From assembly GCA_025093555.1 (NCBI GenBank), contig JAIWNF010000090.1:53989-117988 (forward strand): a stretch of 64,000 nucleotides of DNA, in the 5' to 3' direction. The position numbers and the translations under genes were made by a program. The notes under the pieces were generated by a model. It saw only the letters and a list, made by a program, of their open reading frames with translations. It was not told where the DNA came from and made no database searches. The stretch comes from Circinella umbellata. Its lineage: Eukaryota > Mucoromycota > Mucoromycetes > Mucorales > Lichtheimiaceae. Below are positions 42,781-43,882 of the stretch, one piece after another (within the stretch, counting starts at the first letter, position 1; each line of letters starts with the position of its first letter).

Positions 42781-43882
42781 TTATAGAATAGGACATTTAT
42801 TTCGACGATCCAATTTTTTTTTATTTCGTTGTTTCAATAAAGGTCCACGACTATCACGAATTTTTCGAACCACTGCATAAAATGATCTTTCCACATTAAC
42901 ACATGTTTTAGCTGATGTTTCTGTAAATTCACAACGTAATCGTTTTGCCATTTGTAACCCTTCTTCTCTTGATACTTCACGTTCAGTTACTTTGTCACAT
43001 TTATTGCCGACAAGTATTAAAGGAACTTCATTAATATCCTTGACACGAAATATCTGATCTCGAAATCTTTCAACACGTTCAAATGTTGATCTTGATGAAA
43101 TTGAATAAACAAGTAAAAATCCTTCTCCGTCACGTATCCATTGATCTCTTAAAGCTGTATATTCCTCTTTTTTTTTTTTAAAGTATATATATATATATAT
43201 AGCTTGTTTTAGTTTTGTTTTTACTTGTTATTAAAGATATTTTCTTAATTTAATATCATATATTTATTACCTTGACCAGCGGTATCAAGAACTTCTAATA
43301 CACAAGCTTGTTCATCAATAACAACTTGTTTACGATAAGAATCTTCAATCGTTGGATCATATGTCTATTCATCACATATAAGGACGTTAGTATATCACAT
43401 GGAAACTTCTCTTTATACCACCTCCGATAACCGAGTTTATTTTTTATACCTCTAAATAATAATAATAATAATAATGAATCAAACAATTAGCATATGAAAA
43501 AAAAAATACTTTTTTATACTTATTATTAATGATAATAATAATAAACTTACCAACAAAATGATTCAAGCATAACTTATTTTATATGATTAAATTTATAGTA
43601 AGTATTTTTTTTATTAAGCGATAAGTGAGTAACTGGTTTTTTTTTCATATCGCCACTTCTCTCTCTCTTTTTCTCTCTCCCAAAAAAGAATCACAATGGT
43701 TTCATACTTGTATTGTTAATGCTGTCTATTAATATATATATAAAAAAAGTGGTTTCTTTTTTTGTTAGTCTTTTATATATATAAACGATACATATTGAAT
43801 AATAATAATGATAAGAGAGAGGGGGGGTAATAACCTTTCCTACACCTCCATCTCCTAATACAACAATCTTATAAAGCATCAT
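42781..43882 (-). CDS. Ras-family small GTPase with micro-exons
   Basis: Six exons: 43882-43835, 43725-43708, 43572-43551, 43451-43450, 43364-43271, 43166-42781; 570 nt, 189 aa. A membrane-anchored signalling switch, close in sequence style to the Mucor Ras3 / fungal Ras group. It reads YKIVVLGDGGVGK (G1), then TALTIQ from an 18-nt exon, LCLNHFV from a 22-nt exon, the Glu codon finished by a 2-nt exon (AG), then TYDPTIEDSYRKQ (switch I), LDTAGQEEYTALRDQW (switch II), LVGNKCD (G4), ETSAKTC (G5), a polybasic tail and CPIL, a CaaX box whose final Leu favours geranylgeranylation. The 2-nt exon is needed to keep frame; each flanking intron has its own branch-point-like motif. Either of two adjacent ATGs (43882 or 43879) may start translation. 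Confidence 0.88.

What the first reader, a model, noticed from the sequence alone, without database searches (positions are those of the whole stretch)
43271..43882. Ras gene split into micro-exons of 18, 22 and 2 nt across the P-loop and switch I
Seen: after exon 1 (ending GVGK), ACAGCATTAACAATACAA (TALTIQ) stands between TAG and GTATGA, then 22 nt (LCLNHFV+G) between AAG and GTAAG. The next family residues are ETYDPTIE, but the following exon begins ACATATGAT, so two bases are missing. At 43451-43450 the dinucleotide AG lies between TTTAG and GTATAA; using it gives GAG and restores frame. The intron before has a TGCTAAT branch-like motif and the one after has a perfect TACTAAC (about 43400), so each looks like an independent intron. 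Established: 1-3 nt exons are known but very rare. Inference: a 2-nt exon, spliced by exon-spanning or recursive means.
Basis: partly seen in the sequence, partly recalled or inferred. Interest (0 to 1): 0.8.

Follow-up and report, generated by a model that had tools for sequence, protein, structure and literature searches.

The report
Two-nucleotide exon in fungal Ras2 gene
In this mould the gene for a Ras-type signalling protein appears to contain an exon only two letters long, which finishes one amino acid in the protein's most critical loop and is kept in all three close copies of the gene, so it looks like a real and possibly very old case of extreme splicing.

Summary
On the minus strand, 43882-42781, lies a Ras2-type GTPase gene of Circinella umbellata (Mucorales) with exons of 48, 18, 22, 2, 94 and 386 nt. 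Its product equals the deposited 189-aa protein exactly. The 2-nt exon AG (43451-43450) completes codon 30 (GAG, Glu).

A search for GT-AG models (introns 40-400 nt) that return the deposited protein finds two, both with a 2-nt exon; only AG is shared with the other genes. The two closest paralogs have the same 22-nt plus 2-nt anatomy. TAG|AG|GT stands in introns otherwise no more alike than shuffled ones; joint shuffle frequency 2.5e-7. Ras1-type and Ral-like paralogs lack it.

Of the 120 best-listed Ras2 relatives, 40 are malformed just here, against 0 of 118 Ras1 controls. Several fit a 2-nt gap in other phyla, so the exon may be ancient; this is indirect.

Stepwise intron-definition splicing is inferred; no RNA was available. 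A non-canonical GT-AT intron would give the same mRNA, so cDNA alone cannot decide. Exons of 1 nt are known in plants and Fusarium: a new member of a known kind.

The parts
43835..43882 (-). Ras2 exon 1 (48 nt), start codon to P-loop GVGK
43726..43834 (-). intron 1 (109 nt, GTTATT..TAATAG)
43708..43725 (-). micro-exon 2 (18 nt, TALTIQ)
43573..43707 (-). intron 2 (135 nt, GTATGA..AATAAG)
43551..43572 (-). micro-exon 3 (22 nt, LCLNHFV + first base of codon 30)
   Evidence: 22 nt in both paralogs too
43452..43550 (-). intron 3a (99 nt, GTAAGT..ATTTAG), branch-like TGCTAAT at 43492-43486
43450..43451 (-). 2-nt exon AG, completes GAG (Glu30)
   Evidence: conserved as TAG|AG|GT in paralogs C137 (L009) and C158 (L010)
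43365..43449 (-). intron 3b (85 nt, GTATAA..GAATAG), TACTAAC at 43392-43386
43271..43364 (-). exon 4 (94 nt, TYDPTIED...TAGQ)
43167..43270 (-). last intron of the gene (104 nt, GTAATA..AAAAAG)
42781..43166 (-). exon 5 with stop codon (386 nt)

Best explanation
The window holds a Ras2-type small GTPase gene of the mould Circinella umbellata in which an exon of two nucleotides (AG) stands between two ordinary short introns. It supplies the last two bases of codon 30 (G|AG, Glu), at the start of switch I (region label recalled). Most likely each flanking intron is recognised across the intron and removed in its own splicing reaction, one after the other, because splice factors cannot sit on both sides of a 2-nt exon at once. 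The AG doubles as the -2,-1 positions of the downstream donor (GAG|GT, the same before and after the upstream intron is removed). Shown: the anatomy, its identity in three paralogs, the exact match to the deposited protein. Inferred: use of the sites in RNA, the order of removal, and the age of the exon.
For: (1) The spliced CDS translates to P0001, deposited for C. umbellata on a contig of 117,988 bases; the window ends at base 117,988 of its contig. (2) The exact spliced search (GT-AG, introns 40-400) returns 2 models, both with a 2-nt exon; one needs a 42-nt intron with donor GTTTCC, the other is AG. (3) Paralogs C137 and C158 have exons 43, 23, 22, 2, 128, then 358 and 355 nt; in each, AG is the only in-frame candidate exon (2 mod 3, up to 35 nt, at least 40 nt from both ends). 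(4) TAGAGGT is the only 7-mer shared by the three gap interiors that is not an A/T run; the sub-intron before it is 99, 110 and 96 nt, and outside it the introns are as unlike as shuffled ones. (5) Shuffle frequencies for TAG|AG|GT 0.0085, 0.0054, 0.0055. (6) The donors GTATAA and GTAAAA and the acceptor ATTTAG also occur in annotated Ras1 introns of the same genome; GTGAGA (C137) was not among those 11. (7) Skipping the AG gives a stop at the 3rd codon after Val29 in the window gene and C158, at the 7th in C137. (8) 40 of 120 listed Ras2 relatives are malformed at this stretch, 0 of 118 Ras1 controls.
Against: No RNA data were available. The same protein and mRNA follow from one non-canonical intron, GT..AT, with the AG beside ACA taken as exonic. 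I could not see whether the deposited model uses the 2-nt exon or such an intron. In the window gene a second 2-nt candidate (AA) also restores Glu. The 62-nt sub-intron of C158 is shorter than each of the 11 annotated Ras1 introns (77-139 nt).
Confidence: 0.92

Rival explanations
1. One long intron with non-canonical ends: GT at the 5' end and AT (window), TC (C137) or TT (C158) at the 3' end, the AG next to ACA/ACT being exonic. It gives the same mRNA.
For: Joining exon 3 to exon 4 extended upstream by AG gives LCLNHFVETYDPTIED in all three genes. Read aligners could place the two bases there (inference).
Against: The three genes would need three different non-canonical acceptors. It leaves the conserved TAGAGGT in mid-intron unexplained. 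The AG before ACA/ACT is itself a canonical acceptor.
Confidence: 0.05
2. The 2-nt exon is the other candidate, AA at offset 142 of the window gap (AAAGAG|AA|GTTTCC), giving GAA.
For: It is the second of the two exact models and also gives Glu.
Against: Its downstream intron would be 42 nt with donor GTTTCC, unlike the other donors listed. C158 has no such site; C137's AA site leaves an intron of 38 nt.
Confidence: 0.02
3. The gene is mis-assembled or a pseudogene, two bases having been lost from an exon.
For: A frame gap of two bases is what a deletion would leave.
Against: Two paralogs on other contigs show the same gap and the same AG; the rest of the frame is intact and the protein is deposited at full length.
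Confidence: 0.01
4. A stwintron: an internal intron interrupts a splice element of an external intron, with no exon in between.
For: Two consecutive excisions at one gene position, a known fungal arrangement (listing and abstract starts only).
Against: The reading frame needs two retained bases, and all four splice sites are complete as they stand. The joint that ignores the two bases frameshifts.
Confidence: 0.01

Closest known systems
1-nt exon of Fusarium CYP621A P450 genes (Nelson and Syed 2026, PMC12940212; abstract, part 1 of 3 of the text and the Discussion read)
   Same: Fungal nuclear gene; exon far below the usual limit, in a conserved motif, needed for frame, inferred from orthologs (AGGGT); its authors note that automated pipelines frequently miss micro-exons.
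   Different: 1 nt instead of 2; P450 instead of Ras; reported from Fusarium and its relatives; has RNA reads in support, which I lack.
1-nt micro-exons of plant APC11 and VPS55 (PMC4674806 and PMC8831610; passages read)
   Same: Ultra-short exon between two introns, conserved in a wide group, missing in reference annotations; [quoted passage not shown]
   Different: Plants; 1 nt; supported by RT-PCR and reads.
Exons of 2-5 nt in Arabidopsis, Drosophila and human (as stated in PMC12940212 with its reference 16; that reference not seen)
   Same: Same size class.
   Different: Other organisms and genes; details not read.
Recursive splicing (review PMC13149111, passages read)
   Same: Stepwise removal of adjoining intron pieces at an AG..GT site.
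   Different: Described there for very long introns, and zero-nucleotide sites leave nothing in the mRNA; here two bases stay and each intron is at most 110 nt.
Fungal stwintrons (search listing and abstract starts only)
   Same: Two consecutive excisions at one position in fungal genes.
   Different: No splice element is interrupted here and two bases are retained.

Membership tests
Ultra-short (1-3 nt) spliceosomal micro-exon | Complete canonical acceptor before and donor after the exon | tested here: met
   TTTAG|AG|GTATAA, TATAG|AG|GTGAGA, TATAG|AG|GTAAAA
Ultra-short (1-3 nt) spliceosomal micro-exon | Needed to keep frame and a conserved protein motif | tested here: met
   Skipping gives a stop at the 3rd (window, C158) or 7th (C137) codon after Val29; protein identical to P0001 only with two bases
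Ultra-short (1-3 nt) spliceosomal micro-exon | Each flanking intron of ordinary size | tested here: met
   99/85, 110/90, 96/62 nt against 77-139 nt in 11 introns of three annotated Ras1 genes; the 62-nt one is below that range
Ultra-short (1-3 nt) spliceosomal micro-exon | Conserved in homologous genes | tested here: met
   Three paralogs; other species only indirectly through protein models
Ultra-short (1-3 nt) spliceosomal micro-exon | Included in mature RNA and two introns excised separately | not testable with these tools
   No RNA reads available
Fungal Ras2-type GTPase | Ras domain and closest similarity to fungal proteins named Ras2 | tested here: met
   Pfam Ras E 3.2e-56; named hits include many called Ras2 or small GTPase superfamily; the Ras1-type paralogs draw a different hit list
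Stwintron | A splice element interrupted by an internal intron, nothing retained between | tested here: not met
   All four sites complete, two bases retained
Zero-nucleotide recursive splice site | Acceptor directly followed by donor, nothing retained | tested here: not met
   Zero-nucleotide use (TAGAG|GT) would join exon 3 to exon 4 without the two bases, the same product as skipping, which frameshifts

The most novel reading that the evidence does not exclude
The 2-nt exon is ancestral to the Ras2 genes of fungi, from chytrids and Zoopagomycota to Mucoromycota, Glomeromycota and some Basidiomycota. That would make it the longest-kept ultra-short exon known to me, held for the whole history of the kingdom in the effector loop of a signalling switch. 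Together with the 22-nt exon it forms a 24-nt, frame-neutral pair whose skipping removes LCLNHFVE, while skipping of the 2 nt alone truncates the protein, so Ras2 output could be set by splicing.
Probability: 0.4. Interest if true: 0.78.

Novelty: new member of a known kind. Interest (0 to 1): 0.62.

Why it matters
Exons of 1-3 nt test the limits of how a spliceosome finds exons. This one finishes codon 30 of a Ras protein, is present in three paralogs whose introns have otherwise diverged to background, and a trace that it would leave (a joint that gene callers stumble over) appears in relatives from several fungal phyla. If confirmed, it is a tractable natural case for asking in what order such introns are removed and how a 2-nt exon can persist. 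It would also explain a systematic error: 40 of the 120 best-listed Ras2 records are malformed between the P-loop and switch I.

Tried and rejected
Rejected readings: single GT-AG intron (frameshift, stop at the 3rd or 7th codon); longer micro-exons of 5-35 nt in frame and without a stop, at least 40 nt from both ends (none in any of the three genes); the AA alternative; stwintron and zero-nucleotide recursive site.

Leads that gave nothing: genome contigs (42 stretches matched a pattern, none confirmed) and viral contigs (10 stretches, none confirmed); Rfam and tRNA scans of the window (none); a Drosophila micro-exon paper (PMC8042270, passages: nothing on 2-nt exons). DNA of other fungi was out of reach, so conservation outside this genome rests on protein models alone.

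Literature: nine searches of the held open-access library. Among the rows shown, I saw no report of a 2-nt exon in a fungal Ras gene. Searches showed only 20 of 61, 4,266, 89 and 91 papers; one search found 0 and one search found 1, unrelated. Subscription papers are not covered.

Results against or undecided: of 6 relatives whose model reads VE or VD and then runs on (P0043, P0046, P0069, P0070, P0083, P0108), 2 (P0069, P0108) continue with V-N, as AG|GTRAAY would give; the other 4 do not and cannot be decoded from protein. Models reading I-E, T-E, A-E or Y-E before TYDP (P0070, P0107, P0109, and P0122, P0131, P0133) may mean that the AG is joined to exon 4 in those species, or merely that the acceptor reads GAG. 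One of the 40 malformed models (P0057) lacks only TALTIQ and has LCLNHFVESYDP intact.

Full report
What is there. The window is G000:C201:53989-117988 of a 50.8 Mb assembly. The hand-spliced protein is identical over 189 aa to P0001, named as a small GTPase of Circinella umbellata, on a contig of 117,988 bases, the coordinate at which the window ends (identity checked). Three Ras1-type genes of the same assembly (C154, C132, C163) match C. umbellata records whose contig lengths equal those of the contigs here. The organism is therefore C. umbellata, Mucorales, Lichtheimiaceae. The gene is a Ras GTPase (Pfam Ras, E 3.2e-56) of the fungal Ras2 type (names).

Anatomy. Minus strand, exons 48, 18, 22, 2, 94 and 386 nt (coordinates). 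The 2-nt exon AG at 43451-43450 finishes GAG, Glu30; in the printed alignments to solved Ras structures it lies between FV and TYDPTIED, the start of switch I (label recalled). The two introns around it are 99 and 85 nt and both have GT..AG ends.

Is it forced? I searched for every GT-AG gene model (introns 40-400 nt) whose translation equals the deposited protein. There are two, and both contain a 2-nt exon. One uses AG. The other uses AA 43 nt further on and would need a 42-nt intron with donor GTTTCC. The same search on the three Ras1-type genes gives one model each, with no intron at this place. The caveat is the GT-AG rule: a single GT..AT intron would give the same mRNA.

Paralogs. The two closest relatives in the genome, C137 and C158, have exons 43, 23, 22, 2, 128 and 358 or 355 nt. 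In each, the gap between exons 3 and 4 holds exactly one in-frame candidate exon of up to 35 nt at least 40 nt from both ends, and it is AG, between TATAG and GTGAGA or GTAAAA. The gaps are 186, 202 and 160 nt. Outside the splice sites and the motif they are 43%, 45% and 57% identical in pairs, no more than after shuffling the interiors (mean 50%, range 36-61%, 90 pairs). TAGAGGT is the only 7-mer shared by the three interiors that is not an A/T run, at 96, 107 and 93 nt (alignment). In 20,000 dinucleotide shuffles each, TAG|AG|GT at a usable place occurs with frequency 0.0085, 0.0054 and 0.0055; any AG|AR|GT with 0.043, 0.046 and 0.024; the products are 2.5e-7 and 4.7e-5. Ras1-type genes and two Ral-like genes (C57, C112; the Ral label is my reading) have no intron at this place.

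Traces in other fungi. I read all 120 listed proteins of the Ras2 search. Between LTIQ and YDP, 80 have the normal length and 40 do not. The 80 include a fish record (P0014), an unnamed one that is not of the Ras2 type (P0052) and a chimera (P0003). Of the 40, 39 lack an intact LCLNHFVxx-YDP and one (P0057) lacks only TALTIQ. In the Ras1 control search 117 of 118 new proteins passed the same test and the one flagged (P0185) has normal length with one substitution, so 0 of 118 are malformed. Elsewhere in the same 120 Ras2 proteins the next two spacings are normal in 113 and 114. The faults are informative. Eight of 120 join LTIQ to TYDP, dropping LCLNHFVE, which is 22 + 2 = 24 nt; 12 of 120 join LCLNHF to TYDP, dropping VE. 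Seven models read V-G and run on (P0013, P0028, P0033, P0042, P0061, P0095; P0124) and then meet TYDP; their next codons fit a donor GTTG|GT. If the joint before T is in phase 0, as protein models suggest but cannot prove, such a gene has a phase-1 donor, a phase-0 acceptor, and lacks two bases. These seven come from Calcarisporiella, Actinomortierella, Mucor, Thamnocephalis, Linnemannia and Powellomyces twice (Calcarisporiellomycota, Zoopagomycota, Mortierellomycota and Chytridiomycota). Joins of the first two kinds occur also in Rhizophlyctis (Chytridiomycota), Piromyces (Neocallimastigomycota), Basidiobolus (Basidiobolomycota), Martensiomyces (Kickxellomycota), Geosiphon (Glomeromycota) and Violaceomyces (Basidiomycota). 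This is indirect: it shows gene models failing at one place in a way that a 2-nt gap would cause. Four of six run-on models do not show the GT expected after AG (see Tried and rejected). The lists are the best 120 of about 8,000 scored candidates, not a random sample, and no DNA of these species was seen.

How it most likely works. The sub-introns are 62-110 nt against 77-139 nt in 11 annotated Ras1 introns; one, 62 nt in C158, is shorter than all of those. Branch-like TGCTAAT and TACTAAC stand in the window's two. I infer intron definition with two consecutive reactions. The donor context of the second intron is GAG|GT both before and after the first is removed, in all three genes, because exon 3 and the first intron both end in G; so either order is possible on sequence grounds. 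Skipping the AG gives a stop at the 3rd or 7th codon, so skipped RNA would be unproductive.

Against what is known. Exons of 1 nt are documented in plants (APC11, VPS55; PMC4674806, PMC8831610, passages) and, in 2026, in Fusarium CYP621A, which its authors call the first for a fungal gene (PMC12940212). [quoted passage not shown] A Trichoderma paper of 2024 says functional micro-exons had not been described in filamentous fungi (PMC11121469, passages). So the kind is known; the gene, the size in a fungus, and the possible depth of conservation are what is new, as far as the searches named under Tried and rejected show.

Wording on stop positions, on the 62-nt intron, on what protein joints can prove and on the literature listings was tightened, and the divergence control and four taxonomy look-ups were added.

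Noticed in passing
window 33291-33512 (+): A second small-GTPase fragment (Pfam Ras, E 8.2e-22) in the same window; gene structure not worked out.
   Followed up: no
window 43834 (minus) against L009 and L010: The P-loop intron lies after GVGK (phase 0, exon 1 of 48 nt) in the window gene but 5 nt earlier, inside a Gly codon (exon 1 of 43 nt), in both paralogs: intron sliding or separate gain.
   Followed up: partly
window 43270-43167 against L009 and L010: The last intron also differs in place: after CAAG (TAGQ|E) in the window gene, in the codon after WI (QWI-R) in both paralogs.
   Followed up: no
public protein records P0001-P0120: 40 of the 120 listed Ras2 proteins are malformed between LTIQ and YDP, a systematic database error.
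   Followed up: yes
window 45017-46867 (-): Open frames with USP7-type domains (USP7_ICP0_bdg, USP7_C2) just upstream of the Ras2 gene.
   Followed up: no
window 17767-19275 (+) and 61710-62858 (-): Mobile-element remains: a frame with a DDE_3 endonuclease domain and one with Integrase_H2C2 and rve domains.
   Followed up: no
window 5249-7717 (+): 822-codon open frame with PPR repeats.
   Followed up: no
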